DNA from: Helianthus annuus
Taxonomy: Eukaryota; Streptophyta; Magnoliopsida; Asterales; Asteraceae
DNA: 64,000 nucleotides
NCBI RefSeq assembly: GCF_002127325.2
Contig: NC_035448.2
Span: 117,445,426 to 117,509,425, forward strand
Direction: 5' to 3'
Shown: in pieces, positions 8,820 to 58,938 of the stretch
How the letters are laid out: the number at the start of each line of letters is the position of its first letter
Numbering within the stretch: position 1 is the first letter of the stretch
The notes under the pieces: model-generated
Told to the model about the DNA's origin: nothing
The model's input: only the letters and a program-made list of their open reading frames with translations
Databases searched by the model: none
Position numbers and translations under genes: made by a program

Positions 8820-9017
<198 letters not shown>

Positions 9018-9035
9018 AATCGAAACTCATACTTC

Positions 9036-9480
9036 AGGTACTAAATTTTGTCAATTTTCGAAACTTTAGGGACCATTTTTTTCAATTTTAGAAACTTTAG
9101 GGACCATTTTTTTCAATTTTAGAAACTTTAGGGACCATTTTTTTCAATTTTAGAAACTTTAGGGACCATTTTTTTCAATTTTAGAAACTTTAGGGACCAT
9201 TTTTGTCAATTTTAGAAACTTTAGGGACCATTTTTTTCAATTTTAGAAACTTCAGGGACCATTTTTGTCAATTTTCGAAAGTTCAGGGACCATTTTTGCA
9301 ATTTTCGAAAGTTCAGGGACCATTTTTGTCAATTTTTGAAAGTTTAGGGACCATTTTTGTCCATTTTCGAAAGTTCAGGGACCATTTTGTCAATTTTTCA
9401 AAACTTCAGGGACTGTTTTGTCAATTTTTGGAAACTTCAGGGACTATTTTCGTAAAATTTGAAACTTCAGGGACTTTTTT
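9036..9480 (+). repeat. Tandem array of a 32-bp unit (GGGACCATTTTT family)
   Basis: About 14 head-to-tail units built around GAAACTTTAGGGACCATTTT, TCAATTTT and a spacer. Units drift from left to right (TTTAGG to TTCAGG). GGGACCATTTTTGTAA also occurs in the foldback array and at 2838-3000, so one motif family has been amplified in several ways inside this element. Confidence 0.92.
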
Positions 9481-9565
9481 TTGTTTTTGGCACTTAACTG
9501 GACTAACTGAGTTCTCTAACTCAGTTAGTGGTCCCTTGTATTAAATGCTAACCTAGTTAGGATAT

Positions 9566-16009: not shown

Positions 16010-16158
16010 TGATCTGATAACTATTTGGGTATGGAAATATTGCGCTCTCCTCAATATATTCCTTTTTATGTGAGGTGGCATCATCTTTCTATGTAAGGGG
16101 TAATTGATAACAAGACTAAAACAAAATGTAAAACAGAGGGGGTAGAATAGTAAATTTC
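16010..16158 (+). repeat. R unit, copy 2, left half
   Basis: The half runs from CTATTTGGGTATGG through GAGGTGGCATCATC to GGTAGAATAGTAAATTTC, where Copia D begins. The right half resumes at 27305 after the element, with ATTTC repeated. Confidence 0.85.
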
Positions 16159-16785
16159 TTTTGGTGCACTTGTGTCTGTACTTTGTCTGTATTCGGTCTA
16201 TATGTAAACAATGTCCTAGTTAGTCTGTAAGTTGACCGAGTCAACCATCCTCCGGATTGACTTGGTAAATAGTTAGATATATGGTTGTTTGTCTCGAAGG
16301 ATAAGAGATCGAAGGATGATGTGGATCCTTCGATCTCCTCGAAAGATATGCTTCGATTGATGGACCTCGAAAGATCATCTTTCGAGGTCCCTGTGAATCC
16401 TTCGATAACATTGTAATCGATAGATGATCCTTCGACCATCTATCGAATCCTTCGGACATGTCAACCTGGGCTGGGTATATATATACCCATGCAGTGTATG
16501 TGAGAAGATAGATGCACACAGACAGAAAGATAGAGAGTTTCTTTGAGAGCATTCTGTCCGAAACACACACACACATAGTGAGAGTTTGCAAGTTAGATTT
16601 GTAAACATTGTGCTTGTAACCGAAACCTTCATACGTATTAATACAGTGGTGTTAATCGGTGAACCCTTGTGTGTTTGTGTTTATACTTGTCTCATCCCGG
16701 TTTGCTTGCTAGCTTGGATTCCGCACTCGCTAGTGGGTTAGTATAACAAGGTTTAGGTTCGTCATCCTCCGGAAAGGGACCTATA
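16159..16785 (+). repeat. 5' LTR of Copia D
   Basis: It starts TTTTGGTGCAC (the 3' LTR has TGTTGGTGCAC) and ends GGGACCTATA, not CA as in LTRs A-C. It contains a dense series of CTTTCGA/TCGAAAG motifs, a near-perfect 14-bp hairpin at 16362-16390 and a TATATATATA promoter stretch near 16479. Confidence 0.93.
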
Positions 16786-16787
16786 AG

Positions 16788-16799
16788 TGGTATCAGAGC
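16788..16799 (+). promoter_or_regulatory. Primer-binding site (initiator tRNA-Met), element D
   Basis: TGGTATCAGAGC, two bases after the LTR, complements the 3' end of plant initiator tRNA-Met, the usual Copia primer. The same sequence follows the 5' LTRs of A and B. Confidence 0.93.
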
Positions 16800-17615
16800 C
16801 GTGGCTCTTTACCTTGTTTAAAACCGGGTTTGTTCAAGTTCTTGGTGTGTTTGGACACTAGGTTTAGCACCCGTTTTGGTGGTTTTTCTTGCATCTTAAA
16901 ACTGAAAAACGAGTTCTAAACCTTCGGGAGTGTTCTAGGTTGGGTTGGGTAACTTGAAAACTTGTTTTTAAGTGACTTTGAATTTTCCGGCCATATTTCC
17001 GGTTATCTCCGGTGACTGGACTTGTTGGATAAGATTTGCCTTTTTGGGAAATCTTGTTTGAAAGTCAAAAAGTTGGTGAAAAATCGTGTGCAGAACATCC
17101 CTTCTGCCGAAAGTTGGTACACCAACCTGTCACCTTTTTCACCAACCTGTCACCTTTTCAGTTGTGTCAGAGCTCTTCGAAAGATATCCTTCGACATCGA
17201 AAGATAATCTTTCGATCAAGGAGGCTCGACAGATATCCATCCTTCGAATATCCTTCGAAGCCTGTGTTCTATCTTTCGAGCCAAGGAATCTTGTCGTAGG
17301 ATACATCTTTCGAGCTACTGTTACTCTACGAAAGATAAGGATCCTTCGTATTGGTGAATCTTTCGAGATCTGTGTTCGAAATATAAGGAGAATCTTTTGA
17401 AATCATCTTTCGAAAGATAAGGATCCTTCGTGTGGTCAATCCTTCGAAGTCAATCTTTCGAAGTCTTTGCTCGAAACTCAACAGTGATCGTTCGAACACT
17501 GTTGATCATTCGAACAAGTATTGATCTTTCGAACCAGGTTGTATCTTTCATTTCGGGTCTGTTTGCATTTAACAGTTTGTGTTTGTGTAGGTTTTTCTAT
17601 TAATATTTGATCAAA
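16800..17615 (+). promoter_or_regulatory. Leader of Copia D with TTCGA motif cluster
   Basis: An 816-base leader before the gag ATG. Between 17165 and 17560 about 18 copies of TTTCGA/TTCGAA-type motifs occur, often as ATCTTTCGA and its complement. The same motif fills the LTR. Short ORFs at 17022-17400 are not conserved and look like chance. Possible roles are enhancer, packaging signal or RNA structure; none is proven. Confidence 0.6.
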
Positions 17616-20600
17616 ATGAGTTGTACAAGTCCTTGGGATTGGAGTTTGAACTCACAATCTAATCAAGAACTAACTTCTGCTGATGCTTGGGCAAAAAGTA
17701 TGTTTCCACCGCCATCAATCAGTCCAAGTCAATAGGCGTTGGTCTCCAATCAAAGTCAAAGCATTCAAAACCTTTTGATTAGTGAAAGTGAAACGGGAAG
17801 CAACAATCGTCCACCGAAGTTGAATCACATGAACGATTTTCCATCATGGAAAAACCGTTTTCACACGTATGTTCAAGGGCAAAGCACCGATCTTTGGACG
17901 TGTTTCATCAATGCGTTCAATACTAATCTTGAAACTGCTGCGTCCACTTCAGAAGGTTATGCCAACATGCTGGAAAATGACAAGAAGGCTTATGAATTGG
18001 AGAAAAAGGCCTTTGCTACACTTACACAAGCACTCAGCAAAGATATCTATCATCAGTTCTCATACTGCAAAACCACGAAAACGTTGTGGGATGCCTTAGT
18101 AGCTAGAGGAGAAGGCAATGCAGCAGCTCGAAAGTCTCGTCATGATTTGTTGAAGAAAGAGTTTAAATCGTTTCAGTTTTTGGAAAACGAAACTCTAAAT
18201 GATATGACAACCCGTTTCTATCATCTGATCAGTGAAATGTGTGCTTATGGGGTTGTTTCTACTCAACTAGACATGGTGAATAGGTTTGCTGACGCTTTGC
18301 CTCCAAAATGGAGTTCATTTATTGAGTTGTTGAAGCACACTGGAACTCTAGACACGGTTAACATCTACGAGTTCATTCAGAAGCTGGAACATAAAAATGA
18401 TGAAGAAATCAGGAAAGCAAGGCGTGCTCCAGCTCCTCAGAATACAGAAATGTACCTTCCAGGCTTCGATGTTTTGGCAAGATCTGCTGCAGCTCAGCAA
18501 CAGCAACCTAAGCTGCAAACTGCATTTGTGTCCAACACAAGTTCCTTTCCGTTTCCTCAGTCAACGCCTGCTCCACCACAACCTCAATTCGATCCGAGGT
18601 CTTACATTCCTGTTCCAACACAGCCACAAGTCCAACCTCCACAACAACAACAGCAGGCTCATTATACAAACAATCCTCAACCTCAAAATCCTCACACAAT
18701 CCGAGTCGACAATTCAAACCTTTCACACCTTAGCATTGAAGTTGCTAAGGAGCACATGGAAATTATTAATACAATGGTCAGTGCTTATTGTGGTTTGGTA
18801 GCAGGTCAGCTTGGAAACATCAACATGACCAATGAAGATTATCAACAGATCGACAAGGAAGAAATGGAGTTGATGGATATTAAGTGGGCTTTTGCAAGTG
18901 CGGTTAGAAGGGCCAAAGACTTCATGGCTCGTACTGGTAGAACTTCGTTGGAAGGAAAGAAAGATACGAAGTATGGGTTTGATATCAACGCCGTGACATG
19001 CTTCAACTGTGGTAACAAAGGGCACTTCAAACGTGAGTGCACTCTACCAACAAAACATGGCAATCACAACCCCTTCAGAAACCAGACGAGTACGACAAAT
19101 GTGAATGCCCAACAAGAAAACCGTGAGAGGAGGATGGTGGCAGTTAATAACAATCAGGGCCAGCCTGGAACTTCAAATCCCAATCGGGCCTTGGCTGTTC
19201 AAGCAGATGAGGGATGTGACTGGTCAGTGCAGTTTGGTGATGATGATCAGAGAAGTGGAACAGCTTGTTATGCAAAGATCATCGAGCCTGTTCATAAAGA
19301 AGAATCTTCTGGAAGTGATGACAGTTCTGGTTATTCTGGAAGTTCGGATGAAGAAGGCTCTGTTTCTGGGGATAATCACTCAGAGTCTGATGAGAAGGAG
19401 GAAGAAGGTGAAGATATTCAGGATCTTCTGAATGAAGCTGATGAGCTTAAATGTCAGAAATCGATTCTGATTAGGAAGGCGGATACTGCATCAAAGGAAA
19501 TGGAAAAGTTGTTTTCTGAAGATGGAGCTTTTTCTTCTCAAACTGCCTTTATGGCAAACGGTTCAGCCTCTTCTAGTCAGGTAAATTCTGAACCTCCTGC
19601 TCCTAGTGTTTGTAAATCATGTGCTGATATGAAGCTTGAATCAGAAAAGCTTCATAGTCATAATCAGAATTTGGTTATTGAACTGTCGAAATGCAAAGAG
19701 GCAAACATGGCTTTAACTCGGAATGAAAAAGAATTTAAATCTGTAATAGAAACATTAAAGAAAAATGTGTCCGAGGTTAACAAAGTAGTTTACCACAAGC
19801 AAGTAAGTATAAATGAATATATTAACATTGTGGAAGAAACTAAAAAGCAATTAGCCATTGCCCAATGCGAGCATGATGCGATCAAACAGAAATTGGATAG
19901 TTATTCTAACTCCCAATTTGTACTTGATCACATCATCGATGTTCAACAACCGAAGGGAAATCAGAAAGGCATAGGGTACAAGAAATGTCCGCCCCCTTTG
20001 ATGAACAATTATACCAAGATGCCTGATGAGGAGGAAATGCCTCGGTATGAACCCAGTGTGCCTCTAGATGTTGAGGAATTTGCTACTGGCCTAGGGTTCA
20101 AACCGGAAAATTCATCCTCTAAGCAACAAGAAACGTCATCATCCGTGAAGCAAAGTCCTCCAACCATTGAGGACTATGATTCTTCAGATGATGAATCAGA
20201 TGTGAATGACAAGGATGAATCACTTGATGAAACGAGAGGAGTAGAAATTCCAATTGAGAATCATATTCTTTGTGATCCTCCTACTCCTGTCGTGCAACCT
20301 GTTGCCAAGCAAGTGATAGATCCTGTCAAAGCTGTCAAAGATGTCGGGAATGACAAGGAAAGTATGTTTGCTGTTAAAGGTGATAATGTGTTGTATACTT
20401 TGGTCGGTGATAGTAAAATTTATTCAAACAAAGATTTTCCAATCAAAAATGTCAATCAATCCTTGATTGACAAAGTGTTTGAAGATACTACTAATAAATT
20501 TTTGGGAAAGACCATTCCAGGAGTTGTGGTAACACAATGTGATCCTGTTCCAAAATCAGAAATTAGAAAACAATTTGGAAACCAAAAGTCACCGACAAAG

Positions 20601-21350
20601 CAACAACCAATTGCTTTTAAGGGTAAACAACAACAACGAGCTCCAAAGCCAAAGGCTAAGGTTGAATCAAAAGGAGCTCGTTACAAGAAGAAAGAAAAAG
20701 ATGTTAAATTTGTAGCTTCAAAGGGTACAGATAAAATTGAGACTTTTGAAAACAAATCAAACACTGATTATGTACAACAAGTCAAGATTTTGAAACGTAA
20801 CAGTGATAACAATTACACCCAACACACAAACGGGTGTGATGAAAGAGCAAGTACCTCAGGTTCTACAGGTTCGACATCTGCTAGTCGATCAAGTTCTCCT
20901 AAGTTTGTTGAAAGGAGAACTTGTTTCAAATGTGGGAAGGTTGGGCACATCATTAAAGACTGCACAAACTTGCCCAAACCAAATTTTGTTGAAAGAACCC
21001 CTTCTGAACAAGGTCACTCACAACGTCGTTCTGTTTCTCCAAAACATGATAAAAGAACTGTTAAGGAACAAGAAACGAAACAACGACGTCATAACATCAA
21101 AGCTGTTGAAAAGGCTTTAAAATCTGAAGTCAAAACAGTTAAAAGAAAACCTAGTTTGTCACAACCATTAAAGTCAGAAACTGTACATAATACACAATCT
21201 GGTAAACAAAGACAAACTTGGAGATCTAAAAAGAGTGATAGTTCAGGGGGAGTTAATGTGTTTGAAAACCATCAACAGATCGAGCTCACGTTTCGTGATG
21301 CTCAGGGACGACCCAAGACCACTAAGGCTTGGGTCCCCATTCTCAACTGA
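17616..21350 (+). pseudogene. gag: Long Gag of Copia D (two zinc knuckles, premature TAG)
   Basis: Gag packages the element RNA into virus-like particles. ATG 17616 is chosen because element E starts with the same residues (MSCTSPWDW). The frame runs 1,244 codons to TGA, with a TAG at codon 40 (17733); element A has Trp at the matching place, so TGG to TAG is likely. The capsid-type region spans about residues 50-250. The first CCHC knuckle, CFNCGNKGHFKREC, starts near residue 462; an acidic Ser/Glu-rich stretch and a coiled coil (about 660-780) follow. A second knuckle, CFKCGKVGHIIKDC, starts near residue 1103, then a basic tail. At 1,244 residues it is far longer than common Copia Gag. Residues 656 onward lie in the proposed intron (19581-21372). 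Confidence 0.88.
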
Positions 21351-21372
21351 TGTTTTTAAATGACATGTGCAG
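19581..21372 (+). other. Candidate retained intron encoding the Gag C-terminal extension (element D)
   Basis: The donor-like CAG|GTAAAT lies at 19578-19586, in phase 0 of gag. The acceptor-like ACATGTGCAG|GATG ends at 21372, in phase 0 of pol. Removing these 1,792 bases joins 655 Gag codons in frame to the protease start. Without splicing, pol sits one frame off gag, behind a TGA at 21361, with no ATG. Elements A and E have equivalent sites at equivalent positions. Known comparison: Drosophila copia and several Arabidopsis Copia elements use alternative splicing to separate Gag from Gag-Pol. Splicing here is inferred from sequence only. Confidence 0.6.
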
Positions 21373-24300
21373 GATGTTCTAGGAGGAACTATTAATAGTC
21401 ATTGGATTGTTGATAGTGGAGCATCCAGGCACATGACTGGCGACTTACGGCTCCTATACGACGTGAGAAATATTAGAGGAGGGTATGTTGCTTTTGCGGG
21501 TGACAAAGGCGGTTTTATCACTGGAGAGGGAAGTATCTCCAACGGCATCGTGTGCTTTGATAAGATCAATTATGTTAAGCAAATTGATCACAATCTTCTC
21601 AGTGTGTCGCAAATCTGCGATAAGAAATTCACCGTGCATTTTGATGATGCCGGCTGTTATGTGCTGAAACCTGGATTCAAAATTCCACAAGAATGGATTC
21701 TCTTATCGGCTCCGAGAGTTAATGATCTTTATATTCTCGACATGAGCCAAGCAATTACAACATCTGCACAAGTCACTTGTTTTGTCTCAAAAGCCACGGA
21801 AAAGGAGTCTATATCTTGGCACAGAAGAATGGGACACATTCACTTGAGGAAGATGAATCATTTGGTGAAAAATAATCTTGTGAATGGTGTGCCTGTTCGA
21901 AGTTTTCATTTGCAAGATATCTGTGTCTCGTGCCAAAAAGGGAAGCAAACAAAGAAGTCTCACCCGTTGAAGAAAATCAACACTGTCAGCATGCCTCTCG
22001 AACGTCTTCATATGGATCTTTTTGGACCTATGAAACACAAGACAACGTTCGGTGATGCTTATTGTCTAGTTGTTACTGATGATTATTCTAGATTTTCTTA
22101 GGTATCCTTCATGGCACACAAGAGTGCAACTCCTGGCATCCTCAAGGATCTGCTTACAATGTTGGAGAATCTCTATTCGTTGAAAGTGAAGAGGATCCGA
22201 AGCGACAATGGAACCGAATTCAAGAATCAAGTTATGGATGAGTTTTGTACTTCTAAAGGCATTCTTCATGAGTACAGTTCTCGTTATACTCCACAACAAA
22301 ATGGTGTCGCAGAGAGGAAGAATCGAACAATTATAGAAACTGCAAGAACAATGTTAGTAGAGTCGGAACTCCCTATTCAATTCTGGGGGGAAGCTGTATC
22401 GGCTGCATGTTACACGTTAAACAGAGTTCTTACAGTAAAGAGACATGGCAAGACTTGCTTCGAACTCCTTCAGAAAAGGAAACCGGATCTTTCTTACCTT
22501 GAACCGTTTGGTGCTCCTTGTACTATGATTGAGCCGGATGGAAAGTTTGGTGCAAAAGCTATCGAGGGTTTCTTCCTTGGATATGCTACTCCGAATTTTC
22601 GCGTTTGGAATCTAGCTACCAAAAAGATTGAGCTTTGGAGTGAAGTTAGGGTTCAAAGGTACACGAGTCCTGTTAGGGCTCCGGGTGATCCGTGGATGTT
22701 CGATTATGATGGGCTATTTGACTCCTTTAATCTGCCAACCTTTGATGAAGAGTCAGCAGCGGCTAGGATGTTGTTGGAAAGTGACAACGCTACTGTCTCT
22801 CCTTTGGTTAGACCTATTGTTGTTGATCCTCAAGTTTCCTCGTCTGTCAACAATATGGTTCAAAATGAGGTTTATGAAGATGCTGCTGATTATAATGATT
22901 CTTCTGAAGATGATGAATATCATGATGCAGCTGAAGGATCTTCAGCTCCAGCTGCTCCTGTTCAAGGTGCCTCTGGTGATACACCTCATATGTAGAATGT
23001 AGACACTGCTGAAGGGAATGCATCCACCTCTACTCACATTCCTGGTGTGGAGTTGGTTGTTGATCTTAATCTTACCAATTTGGGTATCAATGCTCGTGTG
23101 CCAGATAATCCTGAAATGAGGATTCACGATACCCACCCCCAGCAGAATATCATAGGAGATGTCCATCGCGGTGTGCAGATGCGTAATCAGCTGAGAAACA
23201 ACCGGAATGCTGGTTTGTATTCAGCTATAAGAGAATCTGGTCAACAAAATGACTGGTCCTTCGCATGTTATGTGTCACAAGAAGAACCAAAATCGTGGAA
23301 AGAAGCATTGAAAGACAGTGCTTGGGTTGAAGCCATGCAGGAAGAATTACAGCAATTTCAAAAGCTTGGTGTTTGGAAGCTTGTTGAAAAACCTGAGAAC
23401 TACAAGAAGATTGGCACTCGATGGGTCTTCAAATGCAAGAAAGACGACCGTGGAGTGGTTATTCGGAATAAAGCTCGTTTAGTCGTTCAAGGTTTTCGTC
23501 AGATAGAAGGGATCGACTACAACGAAGTCTATGCACTTGTTGCACGTCTGGAAGCCATTCGGATCTTTCTGGCTTATGCTTCATTCAAAGGATTCAAGGT
23601 TTATCAGATGGACGTCAAAAGTGCATTTCTACATGGTGTGGTTGACGAAGAGGTATATGTCGAACAGCCTCCAGGTTTTGAAGATCCTGTCCATCCCGAT
23701 CGGGTTTGGTTGCTCAACAAAGCTCTCTATGGTCTTCATCAAGCGCCACGAGCTTGGTATGCAACCTTATCTACATATCTGCTGGAGAATGGTTTTCGAA
23801 GAGGTCTTATCGATTGTACTCTCTTCATCAAAGAACAAGATGGAGATCTTCTTCTGGTACAGGTATATGTTGATGATATTATTTTTGGTTCTACTAATGA
23901 TGCTTTGTGTAGGAATTTCGAGCGCATTATGCAGGATAAGTTCGAGATGAGTGCTATGGGGGAAATGAATTTCTTCTTGGGCCTACAAGTGCAACAAATG
24001 GAGTCTGGGATATTCATCCATCAGACTAAATATGTTGGAGACATCTTGAGCCGGTTCCAGATGTCCGATGCAACGCCCATTGGCACCCCATTGCCAACTA
24101 ATCACGGAATTACTCCTGACTTGAAGGGTGAAGCTGTTAGTCCTTCATACTACCGCGCAATGATCGGATCTCTTATGTACCTCACAGCATCAAGGCCAGA
24201 TATAATGTACCCAACGTGTCTGCTTGCCAGATATCAAGTTAACCCGAAGGCCTCACATCTTGCAGCTGTCAAAAGGATTTTTCGTTATTTGAAGGCGTAC

Positions 24301-24813
24301 CCTGACATCGGTCTGTGGTACCCTAGGGATAATAACTTTGAATTGGTAGCTTTCAGTGATTCTGATTTTGGCGGATGCAAAATCGACGGCAAATCCACAA
24401 CGGCTGGATGTCAGTTTTTAGGAAATCGCCTAGTCACATGGCAGTGCAAGAAGCAGACATGCGTCGCTACATCAACATGCGAAGTTGAATACATTGTTGC
24501 CTCAAGTTGTTGCTCCCAAGTTCTTTGGATCCAACAACAATTGCGGGACTACGGTTTTGAATTCCTAACTACTCCTATTTACGTTGATAATTCTGCTGCT
24601 TTAGATATCACTAAAAATCCTGTGCAGCATTCAAAGACCAAACACATCGAAATCAAATATCACTTCATACGTGATTGCTTTGAGAAAAGGCTAATCGATG
24701 TTGTTAAGGTCCACACCGATGACCAACGTGCCGACTTATTTACCAAAGCTTTTGACAAATCTAGATTTGACTTCTTATTATTGGTAAACGGCATTAAGGT
24801 CAAGCAAGAGTAA
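21373..24813 (+). pseudogene. pol: Copia D Pol: protease, integrase, reverse transcriptase, RNase H
   Basis: One frame of 1,147 codons, broken by TAG at 22099 (codon 243) and 22993 (codon 541). The protease motif WIVDSGAS lies near residue 14. The integrase zinc region has WHRRMGH (149) and CVSC (about 187); core residues are seen in HMDLFGP, SDNGTEF and PQQNGVAERKN (about 215-315). The first TAG replaces an expected Trp after DDYSRFS in the integrase core. The reverse transcriptase runs from about 640, with QMDVKSAFLHG and the catalytic YVDDIIFGS near 832. RNase H shows FSDSDFGG near 996 and HSKTKHIEIKYHF near the end. RT and RNase H look intact. There is no ATG at the start; expression probably needs the splice described at 19581-21372. 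Confidence 0.9.
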
Positions 24814-25338
24814 AACCAACATCGGAAAATCATTTTTGTAAATACCTTTGTGTTTTTAAATTTATCTTAGTTTATTGATTTTAGGGGGAGTAAATCCAAA
24901 AATCGGAAAATCCAAAAACATCGAAAAATTCAAAAACACAAAAACAATAGAAAAACAAAAATGAGTTTCCTGGCGAGCAAAAGAGAAAATGATAGTACAT
25001 CAGTGGTCTATCCAAACCTCTTTAAACCTTAAATGAAAAACGATAAGCAGCTCTATATAAGATGTATCGGTAGGCTCACAATCATTTTAAAGTGTGCAGG
25101 GTGATATAAATCTTAAATCGACTGAAGACCAGGTGGGAACCATTCATTGGCATATGGTCTTAGTACCGAAATTTCGTTTGATAGATTGCCGAGGTTCTGA
25201 GATATTCGGTCTTTATGCTGCTTATCATCTGGGTATCATGGTTGTATCTTTTACCGAAAAAATAACGGGGACGCAAGTCTAGATCTTCCATGATACTATA
25301 CATACGTGTACATATTACATACTGCATTCGACCTCAAT

Positions 25339-25549
25339 AAGTGATAAACAATCACATGTCCAATCAAATAAGTGATAAAATATCACATCTATCCGGGTGT
25401 CAAGTTCGTCTCTCTGCTGTACGGAAGTACTGACCTGTTCACGGACTTGCACCTGTGCCCTCATGCATATGAAAATCAAGTTCCTCATAAATAAGTGATT
25501 ATATCACATAGGGCTTGTTTTCAAATCAAAATAAGTGAGAATCTCACAT
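25339..25549. promoter_or_regulatory. Four conserved short dyads in the Copia tail
   Basis: GTGAT/ATCAC pairs lie at 25341-25355, 25372-25386 and 25495-25507; the fourth (25535-25547) has GTGAG/CTCAC, a paired change that keeps complementarity. Loops are 3-5 bases and variable. Equivalent dyads are in A (about 44192-44400), its duplicate (about 60334-60542) and E (about 54445-54655). They could be protein-binding sites or RNA hairpins. Confidence 0.55.
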
Positions 25550-26666: not shown

Positions 26667-26677
26667 AAGGGGGAGTT
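26667..26677 (+). promoter_or_regulatory. Polypurine tract of Copia D
   Basis: AAGGGGGAGTT lies directly before the 3' LTR. It is the standard plus-strand primer position. Confidence 0.9.
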
Positions 26678-27304
26678 TGTTGGTGCACTTGTGTCTGTAC
26701 TTTGTCTGTATTCGGTCTATATGTAAACAATGTCCTAGTTAGTCTGTAAGTTGACCGAGTCAACCATCCTCCGGATTGACTTGGTAAACAGTTAGATATA
26801 TGGTTGTTTGTCTCGAAGGATAAGAGATCGAAGGATGATGTGGATCCTTCGATCTCCTCGAAAGATATGCTTCGATTGATGGACCTCGAAAGATCATCTT
26901 TCGAGGTCCCTGTGAATCCTTCGATAACATTGTAATCGATAGATGATCCTTCGACCATCTATCGAATCCTTCGGACATGTCAACCTGGGCTGGGTATATA
27001 TATACCCATGCAGTGTATGTGAGAAGATAGATGCACACAGACAGAAAGATAGAGAGTTTCTTTGAGAGCATTCTGTCCGAAACACACACACACATAGTGA
27101 GAGTTTGCAAGTTAGATTTGTAAACATTGTGCTTGTAACCGAAACCTTCATACGTATTAATACAGTGGTGTTAATCGGTGAACCCTTGTGTGTTTGTGTT
27201 TATACTTGTCTCATCCCGGTTTGCTTGCTAGCTTGGATTCCGCACTCGCTAGTGGGTTAGTATAACAAGGTTTAGGTTCGTCATCCTCCGGAAAGGGACC
27301 TATA
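26678..27304 (+). repeat. 3' LTR of Copia D
   Basis: 627 bp, collinear with the 5' LTR without indels at a constant offset of 10,519. It ends GACCTATA and is followed directly by ATTTC, the target duplication. Confidence 0.95.
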
Positions 27305-27560
27305 ATTTCACACCTTACCCATACCCACGCACAACCATAAAAACCTAGTTTTCAACAATTCGACAGACGTATCTTTTTCAGCCATTGCCGCCGTACACAA
27401 CCCTAACTGGTAACGATCATTAACAATGTTAGAGGAAAAGAGGCGACGTGATCTCAGGGTAAACCTTCAATCTTGTTTTCTATTATTATTGTGACGAGAT
27501 TTCCAGTTTTGTATTTTCATAAGCTTTCGGTTTTCTTACTTGTATTTTCATAAGCTTTTG
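27305..27560 (+). repeat. R unit, copy 2, right half (ATG 27426)
   Basis: It continues 16158 after Copia D: CACACCTTACCCATACCCAC, then the first-exon ATG at 27426 (MLEEKRRRDLR) and a donor-like GGTAAAC. It is truncated after about 130 bp of intron and joined to another part of the unit near 27560. Confidence 0.8.
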
Positions 27561-38805: not shown

Positions 38806-41800
38806 ATGAATCCAAGTTGGTGGGGTACTCCGGCTCCGGATGAGGGAAAGTATAGAAATACAAGTTCATCTCCCTCATGGTGGGGTACTCCAGCTCCAGA
38901 TGGGGGAAAGTATAGAAATACAAGTTTATCTCCCTCATGGGCCGAATCTCCCGTATCGACATCTTCACAAGCCAATGCCATATCAACCGGTCAATGGGCA
39001 TTCGTATCAAATCAAACTCCGAGCATTCAAAGTATCTTATTGAGCGAGAGTGAAACCGGAAGTTTGAATCGACCTCCAAAGATGATGCACTTAAATGAAT
39101 ATCCAGGATGGGCAGAGAGGTTCAACACATACGTGCTTGGGCAAAATACAGAATTGTGGTTACGTTTCACCACAGATTTCGATCAAGCGATAGAGGTTGC
39201 CGCTTCATCTGCTGCTACGTTTGCCGATCTTCCAGAAGATCAAAAAAAGACGTATGATCTGGAAAAGAAGGCTTATGCCATTCTTACTCAGGCGTTAAGC
39301 AAAGATATTTACCATAAGTTTGTCAGTTTCAAGACAACGAAGAAACTGTGGGATGCGTTGAAGACCAGAGGGGTAGGAAATGAAGCAACACGTCAACTGC
39401 GACATGATCTACTCAAGAAAGAATTCGATGGCTTCACATGTATGGATAAGGAATCGTTGGGAGACATGACAAGTCGGTTTAATCATTTGCTTACTGAGTT
39501 GGGTAATTTTGGGGTAGTAACAACTCCAGCAGAGGTGGTGAATAAGTTTGCTGATGCGTTGCCTCCCCAATGGAATAGTTTCTTGGAGATTTTGAAGTAT
39601 AACGGGGTTTTGGCTACTACATACATCAACGACTTCGTGCAGCTTTTAGAGAACAAGGATCAGGAGGAAACCTTAAAAGCAAAAAGAGTTCCAGTGCCAC
39701 AAAATCCTGAAATGTATTATGGAACTTCCAGTACTTCTTCTGCAAGACCTATTGTGCCACACAATCCTGAAATGTATTTTGGAACTTCGAGTACTTCTTC
39801 TGCAAAATCCATTGTGCCATGCAATCCTGAGATGTATTATGGAACTTCCAATTCTTCGTCTGCAAGACCCGGTTCACATGCTCCACTTCAAACGGCGTTT
39901 GTCACAAGCACCGATTTGTATGGCAATCAGATACAAGTTCCTGTTAAGCCAGCTCCCACCACAGACTTGTGTGGGAATCCACTTCCTGCTCAACAACAGG
40001 CATGTTATGGTAGTACATCATCTGCTGGTCAGCAATCTAAGCCAAATACAGTACGGCTCGACACGTCAAGCTTTTCAAAGGTCAGTGTGGAAGTAGCAAA
40101 GGAACACATGGAGCTACTTAACACTTTAGTGAGTGCGTACTGTGGGTTAGTGGAAGGTAAGATTGGCAACATTAATCTGACACAAGAAGACTATCAGCAG
40201 ATTAACAAGGAAGAGATGGATTTGATGGATATCAAATGGGCGTTTGCAAGTGCTGTGAGGAGAGCAAAGGATTTCATGGAAAGAACCGGCAGAACCGACT
40301 TGGAAAGCAAGAAAGACACCAAGTATAGGTTCGATAAGCAGGCAGTGAAATGCTTTAATTGTGATGAACGGGGTCACTTCAAAAGGGAATGTACAAGGCC
40401 AGCACAGCATGGGAACCAGAATCCCTTCAGAAATCAAGGCAACCAACAGAACCAGAACAGGAACAATGAGCGTACATTGATACCTGTCAACAACCAGAGT
40501 CAAGCAGGACTATCAAATGCCAACGAGGCACTTGTGATTCAAGTAGATGAAGGTTGTGACTGGTCAATCCAGCTGAGTGGTGATGCTCCAGATGGAACAG
40601 CCTATTTTGCTGAAGTTGTGAAGGATTTAGTTCACACCAGTGGTGGAGAATCTTCCACCAATGGTGGTGAATCTTCTGAGGATGAAGACTCTTCGGGTTA
40701 CAGCAGGAGTTCAGATGAAGAATCCTCAAGTTCAGGCGATGATCATGTGGATGAGACATCAAGTGCGTCAGTTGATGAAGATATTGATGAGCTTTTGGAG
40801 GAAGCTGCAGCAGGAACTGATAGAAGATCTATTTTGGTGGATCAAACTGCTTATTCTTCGTCTTCTCTCCATTCAGCCTTTATGGCTAACGTCGACAGTT
40901 CATCAAGTCAGGTATGTGTCGATGAACCCACTGCTGTTAATTGTGATAATTGTGAGAGTTTGAGTGTTAAATGTGCTGAGTTGGAAGCAAACATGTCTGA
41001 GTTGCAAGGCAAACATGATGCTTTACAAGCTAGTTTGTTTGACTTGCAAGACAAACATGTTACACTGAATGATAAGTGGTGTGAGTTGCAAAGCAAACAC
41101 GAGGCTTTGCAAGAGAAATATGATGTGACGTTTATCCACAACCAGAAGTTGACCGTCGATCTTTCCAAGTGCACTGAAGCCAACATGTTTTATGAAAACC
41201 ATGAGAAAGAGTTTAAATCGGTAATTGAGAAACTAAAGAAAGATAAAACCGAGCTAACTAAAATGGTTTCCAGAAAACAAACTGACATTAATTTGTATAT
41301 ATCTCGCCTTGAGATTATGCAAAAGGAAATGGCTTGTGTTAAAACCGAAAGTGAGGCGATCCAACTTAAGCTAGACAGTTATTTGAGCTCTAGCTATGTG
41401 TTGGATCACATCATTGACGTTCAGAAAGAGAAACGGGATGTCACATGCATAGGCTACAAGAAATGTCCACCACCTGTGAGACACAATTATGATGCAATGC
41501 CTGACGAGGAGGATAGAACTTTCTTTGAACCATCTGTTCCTCTAGACGTTAAAGAATTTGCAACAGGAGTCGGATACAAGAAAGAAGCATCATCATATTC
41601 AGATGTATCAGCAGATACATGTGTGTCTTCTGCTGAACAGAATCTGGATCGTCCAGTCATTATTGAGGATGCTGATTCTTCTGATGATGAATCCGATGAT
41701 ACTGATGTAGCAAAGTCTGATGCGGAAATCAAAGAAGAGGACATACCTCTTGAGAATCATATTCTATGTGATCCTCCTGCAAAACCCGCTAAGACTGTTG

Positions 41801-42777
41801 CAATCAAGTCCTCATCTGCAGAAGAGTCGGAGAGTGTGAATTTGCTGTACACTCTTGTTGGTGATGATAAAATTTATTCAGAGAAAGATTTTCCTATTAA
41901 GAATGTTAATCAATCCTTAATCAGTAAAGTCTTTGAAAATTCGACAAGTAAGTTTTTGGGAAAGACAGGATCACGTGTTACAGTAACACAATGTCCTCCT
42001 ATTCCAAAGGCCGAAATTCGAAAACAATTTGGCAATAAGAAATTACCAACAGTGCAAAAACAGCAAAATCATGCCAAACCCAAAGGAAAACTAACGACTC
42101 AAGCTCAAAAGAAGTCGAATCAAAAGAAGAACAAAAATGTAAACTTTGTGAAATCTAAGGGAACGGACAAAATTGAAACGTTTGAAAACAAATCTAACTT
42201 AGATTTTGTTAAGAAAGCAACTATGTTAAAAAGAAATGAACCAAGCAATTCAAAACCTAGTACCTCGGGATCACAAAGTTCATCATCATCGGCAAGACGA
42301 TCACATGATACTTCGGGGTTTGTTGAACGAAGATCATGTTTTGATTGTGGAACAATTGGACATGTAATTCGAAAATGTCCATATCTTCATAAACAAAAAG
42401 GCAAAGTTGATGATCCCCGTGACCAAACTGACCGTAAGCGATCTGTTTCTGTAAGACAAGATCCCCGCCTTGTAAAAGAAAGGGAAAAGAAACAGAAACG
42501 CCAACAGGTCAAGAAAATTGAAAAGGCGATTAAGACCGATGTGGTTAACAAAACATCTGTTTCTGTAAAACCAGACAATTCAAAAACTTCAGACAACCAT
42601 GAAGTTAAGATTTTAAAGAATAACACTGGTAAAACAAAACAGACCTGGGAACCAAAAACGGTTATTGAATCAGGGGGGCCATCACAATTTACGAATCATC
42701 AAAGAATAGAAATTATTGTTGTCGATGAAAATGGAAGACCCAAGAACACAATGGCTTGGGTCCCCCTCTCCAACTAA
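38806..42777 (+). CDS. gag: Long Gag of Copia A (intact)
   Basis: ATG 38806 to TAA 42777, 1,323 residues without interruption. The N terminus holds two tandem units with SWWGTPAPD. The capsid-type region spans about residues 80-300, followed by three NPEMYYGTS-type repeats (about 300-360). The first CCHC knuckle, CFNCDERGHFKREC, is near residue 516; then come an acidic Ser-rich part, a coiled coil (about 720-865, with LQ.KH heptad-like repeats), a second knuckle, CFDCGTIGHVIRKC, near 1178, and a basic tail. The frame is open upstream to 38770 but only 38806 is ATG. The upstream 702 codons equal a normal Copia Gag; the rest is the proposed intron-encoded extension. An intact frame in an element that has lost pol suggests Gag is under selection or was lost late. 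Confidence 0.92.
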   Translation: MNPSWWGTPAPDEGKYRNTSSSPSWWGTPAPDGGKYRNTSLSPSWAESPVSTSSQANAISTGQWAFVSNQTPSIQSILLSESETGSLNRPPKMMHLNEYPGWAERFNTYVLGQNTELWLRFTTDFDQAIEVAASSAATFADLPEDQKKTYDLEKKAYAILTQALSKDIYHKFVSFKTTKKLWDALKTRGVGNEATRQLRHDLLKKEFDGFTCMDKESLGDMTSRFNHLLTELGNFGVVTTPAEVVNKFADALPPQWNSFLEILKYNGVLATTYINDFVQLLENKDQEETLKAKRVPVPQNPEMYYGTSSTSSARPIVPHNPEMYFGTSSTSSAKSIVPCNPEMYYGTSNSSSARPGSHAPLQTAFVTSTDLYGNQIQVPVKPAPTTDLCGNPLPAQQQACYGSTSSAGQQSKPNTVRLDTSSFSKVSVEVAKEHMELLNTLVSAYCGLVEGKIGNINLTQEDYQQINKEEMDLMDIKWAFASAVRRAKDFMERTGRTDLESKKDTKYRFDKQAVKCFNCDERGHFKRECTRPAQHGNQNPFRNQGNQQNQNRNNERTLIPVNNQSQAGLSNANEALVIQVDEGCDWSIQLSGDAPDGTAYFAEVVKDLVHTSGGESSTNGGESSEDEDSSGYSRSSDEESSSSGDDHVDETSSASVDEDIDELLEEAAAGTDRRSILVDQTAYSSSSLHSAFMANVDSSSSQVCVDEPTAVNCDNCESLSVKCAELEANMSELQGKHDALQASLFDLQDKHVTLNDKWCELQSKHEALQEKYDVTFIHNQKLTVDLSKCTEANMFYENHEKEFKSVIEKLKKDKTELTKMVSRKQTDINLYISRLEIMQKEMACVKTESEAIQLKLDSYLSSSYVLDHIIDVQKEKRDVTCIGYKKCPPPVRHNYDAMPDEEDRTFFEPSVPLDVKEFATGVGYKKEASSYSDVSADTCVSSAEQNLDRPVIIEDADSSDDESDDTDVAKSDAEIKEEDIPLENHILCDPPAKPAKTVAIKSSSAEESESVNLLYTLVGDDKIYSEKDFPIKNVNQSLISKVFENSTSKFLGKTGSRVTVTQCPPIPKAEIRKQFGNKKLPTVQKQQNHAKPKGKLTTQAQKKSNQKKNKNVNFVKSKGTDKIETFENKSNLDFVKKATMLKRNEPSNSKPSTSGSQSSSSSARRSHDTSGFVERRSCFDCGTIGHVIRKCPYLHKQKGKVDDPRDQTDRKRSVSVRQDPRLVKEREKKQKRQQVKKIEKAIKTDVVNKTSVSVKPDNSKTSDNHEVKILKNNTGKTKQTWEPKTVIESGGPSQFTNHQRIEIIVVDENGRPKNTMAWVPLSN

Positions 42778-42796
42778 TCTCTGAGTGAGTGTGCAG
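40912..42796 (+). other. Candidate retained intron encoding the Gag extension (element A)
   Basis: The donor-like CAG|GTATGT has GTATGT at 40912, phase 0 of gag. The acceptor-like GTGTGCAG|GATA ends at 42796, phase 0 of the pol frame. The length is 1,885 bases. The pol frame is blocked upstream by TGA at 42782 and shifted one base relative to gag, exactly as in D. The donor differs from D in the last bases (TGT against AAT), but both are good plant donors. Confidence 0.6.
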
Positions 42797-46030: not shown

Positions 46031-46035
46031 ACATG

Positions 46036-46380: not shown

Positions 46381-47762
46381 TATTTTCAGTATAGTACGGA
46401 CTGGTGGGGTTGGAAACCTGTTCCTGATACGGATAATATGTATACGGGAAAGGGTTTAGCGCCAGTAAATATGTATGGTGAACCAATTGCCTCAGCTATA
46501 AGACCTGCTCAACATGCTCAGCTACAAACAACTTTTGTCTCAAGCACCAATATGTATGGTGAACCACAACCAGTTGCCTCAGAATAAAAACTATCGGTCT
46601 ACTACTCGAGTACCATCATTTCTTGATCCAAACTACAATGGTCAAACAAGAACTGCGTTTTATGCCAGAATTGTCAAGGATGTCAGCAATGGTGAGTCCT
46701 CGGGAAATAATGACAGTTCTGAACATGGCGGTAGCTCAGTTGAAGATGGTACAAGTTCAAGTTCAAGCGAGGATGGATCAGAATATGAATCAACAAGGGA
46801 GATTGTTGATTCTGAGGCAAATGAGTCAATATCTGAGAGTAAATCCAGTCAGGTATGTGTCGATGAACCAAGTTCGGATAGGTGTGATAGTTGTGTTGAG
46901 TTAGCTAAATTGTCTGATTTGCAAAGCAAATTGTCGGATTTGAAAAGCAAATACGAAGATTTGCAAAGCAAGTACGACGTGACATTTATCCATGATCAAA
47001 GTTTGATCGTGGATCTTTCAAAGTGCACAGAGGCCAATATGTTTCACAAAAATCATGAACATGAATTTATAAAGATAATTGACACATTAAAGGAAGATAA
47101 GTCCGAGCTAACAAAAATGGTTTCAAGAAAACAAACTGCGATAAACAATTACATCACTAGGCTTGAGGAAGCACAAAAAGAGTTGGCCTGTGTCAAGTGT
47201 GAAAATGAGGCGATCCAGCTTAGATTAGATAGTTACTCAAACTCTAGGTATGTGCTGGATCACATCATTGACATATAGAAAAAGAAAGATGATGTCACGT
47301 GCATTGGATATAAGAAGTGCCCTCCACCTGTTAGACACAATTATTCCGCGATGCCTGATGAGGAAGATAAACCTCACTTTGAGCCATCTGTTCCTTTAGA
47401 TGTTGAGGAATTCGCAGCTGGACTTGGTTACAAAAAGAAAGTATCATCATACTCGGATGTGTCAGCAGCTTCGAAAGTATCAACTGCTGAACAACATCAG
47501 GATCCTCCAGTCATTGTTGAGGATGCTGATTCTTCAGATGATGAATCCGAGAATACTAACTCAGCACAGTCTGATGCAGAGGACATACCTTTTGAGAATC
47601 ATACTCTATGTGATCCTCCAGCAAAACCTGCTAAGACTGTCCTGGTTGAGTCCACGTCTGCGCAAGAGTCTGAGAGTTGTGAAAGCGTAAATTTGCTTTA
47701 CACATTGATTGGATCTGATAAAATATATTCAGACACGGATTTCCCAATCAAGAATGTCAATC
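46381..47762 (+). pseudogene. Gag remnant of Copia B lacking the capsid and first zinc knuckle
   Basis: The start reads TDWWGWKPVPDTDNMYTGKG with two NMYGEP repeats, stops at TAA about 46585, and is followed by a long frame (46514-47762) with TAG at 47276 where the other elements have Gln. Residues such as QTRTAFYARIVKD lead straight into the acidic/Ser part, the coiled coil and the YTLIGSDKIYSDTDFPIKNV region. The capsid part and the first CCHC knuckle are absent. A donor-like CAG|GTATGT is present at 46853. The end is cut by the Gypsy junction at 47763, so the second knuckle, the acceptor and pol are lost. Confidence 0.8.
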
Positions 47763-56007: not shown

Positions 56008-57816
56008 CTGCACACTCACTCAAAGATTAGTTGGAGAGGGGGACCCAAGCCTTCATAGACTTGGGTTGCCCCTGAGAATCAAGAAATGTAATTTCAATTT
56101 CTTGAAGGTTTTCAAACACAGCACCTCCCCCTGAACTTTCACCCGTCTTAGGTTTCCAAGTTTGTTTTTGTTTACCAGTTTGATTCTTATAAAAGGATTT
56201 TGAAATTTCTGGTTTTGAAGATTGTGATGAACTTGGTTCCCTGTTAACAAATTTGACTTCAGATTTTAAAGCTTTTTCAACAGCTTTGATGTTTTGACGT
56301 CGTTGTTTCGTTTCTTGTTCCTTAACAGTTCTTTTATCATGTTTTGGTGAAACAGGACGACGTTGTGGGTGAACCTTTTCAGGTGGTGCTCTTTCAACAA
56401 CATTTGGTTTGGGCGAGTTTGTGCAGTCTTTAATGATGTGACCAAACTTCCCACATTTAAAACACGTTCTCCTTTCAACAAACTTAGGAGAATCTGATCG
56501 ACGACCTGACGTAGAAGTTGTAGACCCAGAGGTACTAGCTTCACACCCGTTTGTGTGTTGGGTGTAATTGTTATCACTGTTATGTTTCAAAATGTTGACT
56601 TTTTGTACAAAATCGGTATTTGATTTATTTTCAAAAGTCTCCACTTTATCAGTACCTTTGGAGGCCACAAACTTAACGTCTTTTGCTTTCTTCTTGTAAC
56701 GAGCTCCTTTTGAATCAACCTTAGCCTTTGGCTTTAGAGCTCGTTGTTTTTGTTTACCCTTAAGAGCAATTGGTTGTTGCTTTGTCGGTGATTTCTGTTT
56801 TCCAAATTGTTTTCTGATTTCAGCTTTTGGAATTGGGTCACATTGAGTTACAATGACTCCTGGAATTGTCTTTCCCAAAAACTAGTTTGTAGTGTCTTCA
56901 AAAACTTTGTCAATCAAAGATTGATTGACGTTTTTTATTGGAGAATCTTTGTCTGAATAAATTTTACTATCACCGACTAAAGTATACAACAAGTTATTGC
57001 TCTTAACAGCAGACATACATTCCTTGTCATCTTTGACATCCTTGACAAGATTTATCACTTGCTTGGCAACAGGTTGCACGGCAGGAGTAGGAGGATCACA
57101 AAGAATATGATTCTCAATTGGAATTTCTACTCCTTTCGTCTCATCAAGTGATTCATCCTGGTCACTCACATCTGATTCATCATCTGAAGAATCATAGTCC
57201 TCAATGGTTGGAGGACTTTGATTTGAAGCGCATGATGACTTTTCTTTGTTATCAGATGAGCCCTCCAATGAATTGTCCGGTTTGAACCCTAGGCGAGTAG
57301 TAACTTCCTCATAATCAAGAGGCACACTGGGTTCATACCGAGGCATATCCTCTTCATCGGGCATCTTGGTATAGTTGTGTCTCAAAGGGGGTGGACACGC
57401 CTTATACCCAACGCCTTTCACATTGCCTTTCAGTTTTTGAATGTCTATGATATAATCGAGCACAAATCGGGAGTTAAAATAACTCTCCAACTTTTGCTTG
57501 ATAGCATCATGCTCGCATTTGACAATGGCTAACTCTTTTTGGTTTCCTCAACAATGTTAATGTAATCGTTAATACTAACTTGTTTATGATAAACAACTTT
57601 GTTCAATTCGGAAACACTTTTCTTTAGGGTTTCAATTACAGATTTAAAATCCTTTTCGTTTCGAGTTAACGCCATGTTTGCCTCTTTGCACTTAGACAAT
57701 TCAATAACCAATCTTTGATTGTGACTATAAACCGTTTCAGATTCACGTTTCAATTTAGCACATTCATGTTTCATATCAGCACAATCACTACAGATGTTAG
57801 GAGTTTCAGATTTTAC
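56008..57816 (-). other. Candidate retained intron encoding the Gag extension (element E)
   Basis: On the minus strand, the donor-like CAG|GTAAAA begins at 57816, exactly 186 codons (phase 0) after ATG 58374. The acceptor-like GTGTGCAG|GAAG ends at 56008. The length is 1,809 bases. gag ends TAA, and the pol frame is again blocked by a TGA just upstream of the acceptor. Confidence 0.55.
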
Positions 57817-58374
57817 CTGACTTGTAGAAGTTGTGATATTAGCCATAAAGGCAGTCTGAGAAGAGAAAGATCCATCTTCAGTGAGAATCTTCTCCGTTTC
57901 TTCTGATGTAGCATCAGCTTTCTTGATCAAGTCAGATTTCTTGTTAGCATCATTCGACAAATTATCAGCTTCAGAATCCATTCCCTCCTTGACGTCCGAT
58001 TCTGAACTGCAATCACTCACACCTAAGCCATCTTCATCAGTACTGCCACTATATCCTGAAGTGTCATCATTTCCCGAAGATTCACCATCATTGACATTCT
58101 TGACAATTTCAGCGTAAAACGCAGTTCTTGTTTGATCACCGTTTCCCAACTGTATGGCCGGACCACAATCGACACTTGGATTGAATTGAGGTTGTGTTGT
58201 GGAAGCTTGAGGTTGAGGTTGGGCTTGAGGAATGGAATTCATTAAATATGCGGCCATCGAAGTCTGATGTGGAGGGGGTCGAGGTATGGAATTCGCTAAA
58301 TATTCGGCCATCGAAGTCTGATTTTGAGCTGGTCGTGGGTCCGTACTCCAATCCCACGGACTTGTGCAACTCAT
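56027..58374 (-). pseudogene. Gag of Copia E without capsid and first zinc knuckle
   Basis: ATG 58374 opens MSCTSPWDWST, shared with D. After Gln/Pro-rich repeats (two QTSMA.YL units) the frame passes directly to QTRTAFYAEIVKN; the capsid and first CCHC knuckle are absent, as in B. The acidic part, coiled coil, SKIYSDKDSPIKNVNQSLID and the second knuckle CFKCGKFGHIIKDC follow. A frameshift near 57529 and a TAG near 56881 (where D has Lys) break the frame. The end PLSN then TAA matches A. Confidence 0.82.
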
Positions 58375-58393
58375 GATTGGTGTATAGAAGTGA

Positions 58394-58871: not shown

Positions 58872-58938
58872 AATGGAAGACCCAAGACCACAATGGCTTG
58901 GGTCCCCCTCTCCAACTAATCTCTGAGTGAGTGTGCAG

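What the first reader, a model, noticed from the sequence alone, without database searches (positions are those of the whole stretch)
19581..21372. Possible splice switch between long Gag and Gag-Pol in Copia D, with a coding intron
Seen: gag is open for 1,244 codons (one TAG at codon 40) and ends in TGA; pol lies one frame off, has its own upstream TGA (21361) and no ATG. A donor-like CAG|GTAAAT (19581) and an acceptor-like GTGCAG|GA (21372) are both phase 0, so removal of exactly 1,792 bases joins a normal-length Gag in frame to protease. The 'intron' is itself coding (coiled coil, second CCHC knuckle). Known: other Copia elements use splicing to set the Gag to Gag-Pol ratio. Inference: here unspliced RNA would make an extended Gag and spliced RNA Gag-Pol, an arrangement I do not know as described.
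Basis: partly seen in the sequence, partly recalled or inferred. Interest (0 to 1): 0.92.

Follow-up and report, generated by a model that had tools for sequence, protein, structure and literature searches.

The report
Coding intron sets Gag versus Gag-Pol
A sunflower retrotransposon of the Sirevirus type appears to use RNA splicing, across an intron that is itself protein-coding, to choose between making its long structural protein (Gag) and its enzyme polyprotein (Gag-Pol), which would explain an expression puzzle in these elements that dates from 2003.

Summary
Element D is a sunflower (Helianthus) Sirevirus-type Ty1/copia element: long gag ending in TGA, pol in another frame behind its own TGA, and phase-0 sites CAG|GTAAAT (19581) and GTGCAG|GA (21372) bracketing 1,792 coding bases. 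The frame layout and a hairpin at the end of gag were already known in Sireviruses and ascribed to ribosome bypass or internal entry. Comparative evidence favours splicing instead. By an approximate matrix the donor is the best GT of gag in D (1 of 209), family E (1 of 225) and distant relative L024 (1 of 120), always phase 0 and at the homologous place; 121 of 130 distinct gag linkers carry [Q/E/K]-V there, the footprint of NAG|GT. The acceptor TGTGCAG|GA is kept, with a branch-like CTRAY at the gag stop. Pol's frame differs (+1 in D, -1 in L024), yet splicing joins both in frame. The intron is under protein-level purifying selection. Against: no RNA reads could be examined; of 15 Helianthus gag-pol models five join exactly there, but six, standing for many more records, use an implausible 40-base intron; and the intron is not U-rich.

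The parts
16161..16786 (+). 5' LTR (aligned part)
   Evidence: 626 bases at 99.84% identity to 26680-27305
16788..16799 (+). primer-binding site TGGTATCAGAGC (initiator tRNA-Met type; label recalled)
   Evidence: sequence read
17616..21350 (+). long gag frame, ATG to TGA, with one TAG at 17733-17735
   Evidence: PF14223 and two zf-CCHC stretches
18996..19043 (+). first CCHC knuckle, in predicted exon 1
   Evidence: Pfam PF00098 at P0001 residues 421-436
19578..19586 (+). 5' splice site CAG|GTAAAT, phase 0
   Evidence: rank 1 of 209 GTs in gag; homologous sites in E, R, G and L024
19581..21372 (+). proposed intron of 1,792 bases, itself coding for the C-terminal half of the long Gag
   Evidence: bracketed by the two sites; Ka/Ks 0.31 against R and 0.26 against E
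20922..20963 (+). second CCHC knuckle, inside the intron
   Evidence: two PF00098 stretches in gag
21310..21335 (+). hairpin at the end of gag (GACCCAAG/CTTGGGTC plus inner pairs)
   Evidence: folds; equivalents in E, F, R and L024; fits the motif described in PMC5009743
21347..21351 (+). branch-point-like CTGAT overlapping the gag TGA, 22 bases before the acceptor
   Evidence: only YTNAY in the last 50 bases; same in E, R and L024 at 19-21 bases
21361..21363 (+). TGA in the pol frame, ten bases after the gag stop
21370..21373 (+). 3' splice site CAG|G, phase 0 to pol
   Evidence: TGTGCAG|GA at the four junctions found in the window and in L024; rank 2 of 141 AGs
21373..24813 (+). pol (protease region, integrase, reverse transcriptase-RNase H), with premature stops at 22099 and 22993 and natural stop at 24811
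26668..26675 (+). polypurine tract AGGGGGAG next to the 3' LTR; further copies at 24883, 26476 and 26493
   Evidence: multiple identical PPTs are a Sirevirus trait (PMC2829016 passage)
26680..27305 (+). 3' LTR (aligned part)
40909..42796 (+). family E comparison: donor CAG|GTATGT (GT at 40912), gag stop 42775-42777, acceptor TGTGCAG|GA ending at 42796; intron 1,885 bases
56008..57819 (-). relative R (80% identical to D): donor CAG|GTAAAA (GT at 57816), acceptor ending at 56008
46850..46858 (+). relative G: donor CAG|GTATGT (GT at 46853), with a copy at 62995
58899..58938 (+). relative F: end of gag and acceptor TGTGCAG|GA ending at 58938

Best explanation
D is a Sirevirus-type Ty1/copia element whose single transcript has two uses. 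Unspliced RNA, which is also the genome, is translated to a long Gag (nominally 1,244 codons) with two CCHC knuckles, stopping at 21348. A minor share of the RNA is spliced by the host spliceosome from CAG|GTAAAT (19581) to GTGCAG|GA (21372). The branch point is probably the CTRAY that overlaps the gag stop codon. Removing the 1,792-base coding intron joins the first 655 codons of Gag in frame to the protease, so spliced RNA makes Gag-Pol. The ratio of Gag to Gag-Pol is then set by splicing efficiency, possibly restrained by the hairpin just upstream of the branch point. Shown: both sites, their phases, conservation of position and phase in relatives, non-conservation of the pol frame, and purifying selection on the intron. 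Inferred: that splicing occurs, that it is the minor form, the branch point, and the role of the hairpin.
For: Sites and phases are exact. The donor ranks first among all GTs of gag in D (1 of 209), E (1 of 225), L024 (1 of 120) and the first ORF of R (1 of 43), phase 0 each time. Matches to MAG|GTRAGT are 8, 8 and 7 of 9 for D, E and L024. With codons shuffled but the protein kept, the observed donor score is reached in 52, 107 and 40 of 2,000 shuffles. [QEK]V occurs in 121 of 130 distinct linkers, against a shuffle mean of 38.7 and maximum of 55 in 500; in a thinned set 26 of 30, against 9.2 and a maximum of 17 in 2,000. The acceptor TGTGCAG|GA is at the four window junctions and in L024, ranking 2 of 141 (D), 2 of 156 (E), 2 of 144 (R) and 1 of 101 (L024). 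Intron lengths are 1,792 and 1,885 (remainder 1 mod 3) and 1,430 (remainder 2), yet L024 still joins in frame. Models P0036, P0038, P0039, P0048 and P0113 join exactly at Q|D or Q|G; pieces of P0038 cut at that junction align end to end to 17616-19580 and 21373-24810. P0273 of Centaurea joins at the homologous E|. Ka/Ks in the intron is 0.31 and 0.26.
Against: No RNA read was examined. Of 15 gag-pol models from the first search, 5 join at the proposed donor, 6 use a 40-base intron (TGG|GTCCCC) and 4 use other donors; the 40-base type stands for far more records (P0008 223, P0009 85). Of all 145 database proteins with a protease-like DSG motif, only P0273 adds a clear join at the homologous donor (P0143 perhaps); many of the rest lack gag. 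With only the protein kept, the site is still the top GT in 134, 265 and 92 of 2,000 codon shuffles, so the top rank alone is not decisive. Counting all of gag, the D acceptor is 4th of 283. The D intron is not U-rich (25.3% T against 25.5% and 29.2% in the exons). E and R have two extra AGs between branch signal and acceptor. The matrices are recalled approximations. E, F and R copies lack most of pol. Named protein relatives are all Asteraceae. D itself is a disabled copy.
Confidence: 0.82

Rival explanations
1. Translational recoding: ribosomes bypass the gap between the gag stop and pol, or enter internally, guided by the hairpin at the end of gag. This is the published suggestion for Sireviruses.
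For: A hairpin sits at 21310-21335 with equivalents in E, F, R and L024. The published motif and the pol-frame stop ten bases after the gag stop fit D (PMC5009743 and PMC2829016 passages).
Against: It does not predict a conserved donor 1.4-1.9 kb upstream, a conserved AG|G acceptor, or donor-like codon choice. The pol frame is +1 in D but -1 in L024 with practically no overlap. The frames in D do not overlap, and a second stop lies in the pol frame. The hairpin is equally compatible with control of splicing; its folding z-scores range from -0.23 (E) to -2.51 (R).
Confidence: 0.1
2. The residue pair Q-V is kept for the protein, for example as part of a dynein-light-chain-8 docking motif (GIQVD-like); its likeness to a splice donor is incidental.
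For: Binding of Sirevirus Gag to LC8 proteins is mentioned in a PMC2829016 passage. Some linkers read GIQVN or IQVN (P0106, P0152). The motif shape is recalled.
Against: Q is replaced by E and K, the other NAG residues, which a Q-centred docking motif would not allow (recalled). Codons are NAG GTA in 5 of 5 DNA sequences (D, R, E, G, L024) although CAG, GAG and GTA are minority codons; L024 also has a neighbouring CAG GTG. The acceptor is conserved too.
Confidence: 0.04
3. A short intron near the end of gag (TGG|GTCCCC to CAG|GA, 40 bases in D) joins the full long Gag to Pol, as many database models have it.
For: Six of 15 junction models from the first search use it, including the clusters with most members, and P0117 of the second search too.
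Against: 40 bases is below the usual plant intron minimum (recalled), and the donor scores -1.5, rank 175 of 209. Other models pick other donors. It looks like a predictor bridging two frames.
Confidence: 0.03
4. D is only a decayed copy; the frame gap is an accidental indel.
For: Three premature stops in D.
Against: The same gag ending, stop and acceptor are found in E, F and R and in L024, and 34 of 339 proteins in hand end in WVPxxN like D.
Confidence: 0.01

Closest known systems
Sirevirus (SIRE/Maximus) gag-pol organisation, Gao et al. 2003, as cited in PMC5009743 and PMC2829016
   Same: Long gag, pol in another frame, a pol-frame stop ten bases after the gag stop, and a hairpin at the end of gag.
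   Different: Explained there by bypass or internal ribosome entry; no intron or donor in the passages seen. Gao 2003 itself was not held.
BARE1 of barley (Copia), PMC3735527 (passages)
   Same: Facultative intron at the gag-pol boundary with CAG/GT and CAG/GA borders that sets Gag against Pol.
   Different: The intron is 104 bases, and the spliced RNA makes Gag only; unspliced makes Gag-Pol. Polarity is opposite.
EVD (Arabidopsis) and copia (Drosophila) short-GAG RNAs, as described in PMC12786077 and PMC3735527 (passages)
   Same: Alternative splicing of a Copia transcript sets the Gag excess.
   Different: The spliced form is Gag; in D the spliced form would be Gag-Pol.
Ogre (Ty3/gypsy) and Bianca (Copia), as described in PMC6317226 (passages)
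   Same: Two ORFs; in Ogre the region between them is spliced out of a subset of transcripts so that the whole polyprotein is translated, the same polarity as in D.
   Different: The ORFs are separated by on average 274 (Ogre) and 172 (Bianca) bases, not by a coding intron; Ogre is of the other superfamily; for Bianca no splicing is stated in the passages seen.
Sunflower Tyran and Varan RNAs, PMC7730604, and triticale GAG-RNAs, PMC7765848 (passages)
   Same: Spliced isoforms of Copia elements seen by nanopore sequencing.
   Different: Short isoforms encode Gag or truncated Gag; the word SIRE occurs in neither main text.

Membership tests
Sirevirus (SIRE/Maximus lineage of Ty1/copia) | Copia domain order: gag, protease region, integrase, reverse transcriptase | tested here: met
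   Pfam order PF14223, PF00098, PF22936, PF13976, PF00665/PF25597, PF07727 (PF00665 in D below its cut-off)
Sirevirus (SIRE/Maximus lineage of Ty1/copia) | Much enlarged gag with central CCHC knuckle and downstream coiled coil | tested here: inconclusive
   1,244 codons and two knuckles; coiled coil judged by eye only, no coil predictor run
Sirevirus (SIRE/Maximus lineage of Ty1/copia) | Multiple identical polypurine tracts | tested here: met
   AGGGGGAG at 24883, 26476, 26493 and 26668
Sirevirus (SIRE/Maximus lineage of Ty1/copia) | gag and pol in different frames with an inverted repeat at the boundary (in many members) | tested here: met
Sirevirus (SIRE/Maximus lineage of Ty1/copia) | Reverse-transcriptase phylogeny places it in the SIRE clade | not tested
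   no tree was built
Sirevirus (SIRE/Maximus lineage of Ty1/copia) | Envelope-like extra ORF downstream of pol (not in all members) | tested here: not met
   no ORF of 100 aa or more between 24813 and 26680; PMC6317226 reports such ORFs in 74% of SIRE elements, so not defining
Splice-controlled Copia expression (BARE1/EVD type) | Spliced RNA encodes Gag only | tested here: not met
   the D junction opens pol in frame
Spliceosomal intron | GT-AG borders with consensus flanks and branch signal at a usual distance | tested here: met
Spliceosomal intron | U-rich relative to flanking exons, as usual in plants | tested here: not met
   25.3% T in the D intron against 25.5% and 29.2%
Spliceosomal intron | Removed from RNA in vivo | not testable with these tools
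   no transcript data available

The most novel reading that the evidence does not exclude
[quoted passage not shown] This replaces the bypass or internal-entry models, leaves the pol frame free to drift, and runs with the opposite polarity to the Copia splice switches that I found described. Some genomic copies (candidates: loci of P0036, P0038, P0039, P0048) may even be reverse-transcribed spliced RNAs.
Probability: 0.55. Interest if true: 0.86.

Novelty: new variant of a known kind. Interest (0 to 1): 0.78.

Why it matters
[quoted passage not shown] A conserved splice donor and acceptor give an ordinary and directly testable answer. [quoted passage not shown] It would also explain why gene predictors make conflicting models of these elements.

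Tried and rejected
Viral-contig scans for relatives gave nothing useful: the hairpin pattern matched 23 stretches, taken as chance and not read, and of 33 stretches matching the pol alignment's patterns none was a relative by tblastn. The bacterial-genome scan gave one locus of 12 matching stretches, L024, a 3.5 kb plant-like contig in a Labilibacter assembly, taken as contamination; its plant is unknown (nearest named gag hits Taraxacum and Cichorium at about 50%). A single alignment of the linkers split the conserved V into two columns, so a rule-based count with shuffles was used. Donor alternatives in D were ranked; the next best phase-0 site, CAA|GTAAGT at 19803, reads CAA|GTTAGT in R. 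One search ended with a formatting error after its main results; the composition part was redone. Ka/Ks for exon 1 of D against E could not be computed (synonymous sites saturated). My notes give the short intron as 41 bases; the recount gives 40, and adds P0011, which the pattern had missed. Rejected: an accidental frameshift, and the 40-base intron. Not resolved: whether P0036, P0038, P0039 and P0048 are annotated introns or intronless loci.
Full report
What is there. Element D lies between near-identical LTR copies (16161-16786 and 26680-27305, one mismatch in 626), with a primer-binding site at 16788 and several identical polypurine tracts. Its closest protein relatives are Helianthus annuus retrotransposon proteins (87% identity over the whole query). 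Pfam domains run in the Copia order. The long gag, the repeated polypurine tracts and the gag-pol boundary fit the Sirevirus (SIRE/Maximus) lineage, though no tree was built. Gag is open from 17616 to a TGA at 21348 apart from one TAG at codon 40. Pol lies one frame off and is closed upstream by TGA at 21361. Pol carries two further premature stops (22099, 22993), so this copy is disabled. All coordinates in the finding are right.

What was already known. A review passage (PMC5009743) says that one set of sireviruses has pol in the +1 frame, that a subset has a conserved stop in the pol frame ten bases after the gag stop, and that both subsets have a 27-base motif that can form an 11-bp stem with a four-base loop; it says that puzzles abound. 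A passage of PMC2829016 says internal ribosomal entry or bypass had been suggested, with an inverted repeat at the gag/pol boundary. Both cite Gao et al. 2003, which was not held. D fits this description: ten bases between the two stops and a hairpin at 21310-21335. So the layout is known; the splice reading is the new part.

The donor. With an approximate recalled matrix for plant 5' splice sites, GT 19581 is the best of 209 GTs in the D gag in any phase. In family E, about 50% identical at protein level, the homologous site CAG|GTATGT is best of 225. In L024, a plant-like contig inside a bacterial assembly with a much diverged gag, GAG|GTATGT is best of 120. In the first ORF of relative R the site is best of 43. 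All are phase 0. Keeping the protein but shuffling synonymous codons reaches the observed scores in 52, 107 and 40 of 2,000 shuffles for D, E and L024, and makes the site the top GT in 134, 265 and 92; so codon choice adds moderate evidence beyond the protein. D and E share ancestry, so the three are not fully independent.

The footprint in proteins. I took 341 proteins: 338 from three database searches, D's own gag, L024 and E. Of these, 170 had the locus as I defined it by pattern (a CCHC knuckle, then A[FL]MA or similar, then CxxC); the other 171 did not match and were not examined further. The 170 gave 130 distinct linkers, of which 121 contain [QEK]V; residue shuffles gave a mean of 38.7 and a maximum of 55 in 500. 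Of the nine lacking it, four (P0085, P0090, P0096, P0098) look like models that leave gag at that very point. In a set thinned to 60% similarity, 26 of 30 have it, against 9.2 expected and a maximum of 17 in 2,000. Q, E and K are the residues written by NAG codons and V by GTN, so this is what a phase-0 NAG|GT donor leaves in a protein. The linkers come from Helianthus, Smallanthus, Mikania, Deinandra, Tagetes, Tanacetum, Taraxacum, Arctium, Centaurea and a few unnamed sources; the named ones are all Asteraceae.

The acceptor and branch signal. At the four junctions found in the window by pattern, the gag stop is followed by TGTGCAG|GA, and L024 has the same TGTGCAG|GA. By an approximate matrix it ranks 2 of 141 (D), 2 of 156 (E), 2 of 144 (R) and 1 of 101 (L024) among AGs from the donor to 300 bases past the acceptor; counting all of gag it is 4 of 283 in D, 2 of 326 in E and 1 of 145 in L024. 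The only YTNAY in the last 50 bases is CTGAT, CTAAT or CTAAC, 19-22 bases upstream; it overlaps the gag stop in D, E and R and adjoins it in L024. In E and R two further AGs lie between it and the acceptor, a weak point.

Frame logic. The intron would be 1,792 bases in D, 1,885 in E and 1,430 in L024. The first two leave remainder 1 on division by three, the third remainder 2; pol is +1 of gag in D and -1 in L024. A translational shift would need two different mechanisms; splicing at phase-0 sites joins both in frame (in L024, MVTNNPQVTE to ERLRRNISRPWYVDS).

The intron is coding. Between D and R the part inside the intron has Ka/Ks 0.31 (498 codons), and between D and E 0.26 (559 codons, synonymous sites near saturation). 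It contains a second CCHC knuckle. Selection on it as protein fits unspliced RNA as the source of a functional long Gag. It is not U-rich in D (25.3% T against 25.5% in exon 1 and 29.2% in exon 2), unlike many plant introns.

Database gene models. Of 15 models from the first search that hold a recognisable gag-pol junction (14, P0011 added), five (P0036, P0038, P0039, P0048, P0113) join exactly at Q|D or Q|G. Six (P0003, P0006, P0008, P0009, P0011, P0103) use TGG|GTCCCC, a 40-base intron in D whose donor ranks 175 of 209. Four use other donors (P0010, P0017, P0018, P0040). Fourteen of 15 begin pol right after the CAG|G acceptor; P0010 does not. Counted by member sequences the 40-base type dominates (P0008 223, P0009 85). 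Among all 145 of 339 proteins with a protease-like DSG motif, the only further clear join at the homologous donor is P0273 of Centaurea, with P0143 as a possible one; many of the others lack gag or join elsewhere. These are predictions and weak evidence either way. Pieces of P0038, cut by me at its junction, align end to end to 17616-19580 and 21373-24810. P0038 and P0039 are 99.6% identical and listed with contigs of different length. They and P0048 read through pol to its natural end without gaps, and P0036 nearly so, whereas seven of the nine models with other junctions (P0003, P0006, P0008, P0009, P0010, P0017, P0018) leave pol at LLLVQ; P0103 and P0117 reach the natural end but skip parts of pol, and P0118 reaches it with a 20-residue gap.

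Literature. Splicing that sets Gag against Pol is known in Copia: BARE1 (PMC3735527, passages) and EVD as described in PMC12786077 (passages), with spliced RNA giving Gag. Ogre (PMC6317226, passages) has the same polarity as proposed here, in another superfamily. Sunflower Copia elements have spliced short isoforms (PMC7730604, passages).

Verdict. The splice switch is the best-supported reading (0.82; lowered by 0.01 after the recount of gene models). Splicing itself, its efficiency, the branch point and the hairpin's role remain inferred. One read set across 19580/21373 would settle it.

Noticed in passing
38770-42777 (E) and 55936-58398 minus strand (R): E has an intact 1,335-aa gag frame but almost no pol, and R lacks the capsid part and most of pol: gag-only, apparently non-autonomous Sirevirus derivatives that still keep the donor and acceptor.
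   Followed up: partly
42252-47858 and 58394-64000: A 5.6 kb stretch is repeated at 99.6% identity in the same orientation.
   Followed up: no
2644-7858 and 8823-9481: Dense direct and inverted repeats, with arrays of related units, in the self-comparison.
   Followed up: no
16161-27305: D has LTR copies with one mismatch in 626 bases yet three premature stops in gag and pol, as if a defective copy had been mobilised by proteins supplied in trans.
   Followed up: no
L024:1-3498: A contig in the Labilibacter sediminis CG51 assembly (NZ_VCHY01000052.1) is a plant-like Sirevirus fragment, evidently contamination.
   Followed up: yes
16154-16158 and 27305-27309: A possible 5-base target-site duplication ATTTC flanks the element, read by eye.
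   Followed up: no
database models P0085, P0090, P0096, P0098: Gag models of the family-E kind leave the frame exactly at the proposed donor but continue at other acceptors, so the donor may be used with more than one acceptor.
   Followed up: no
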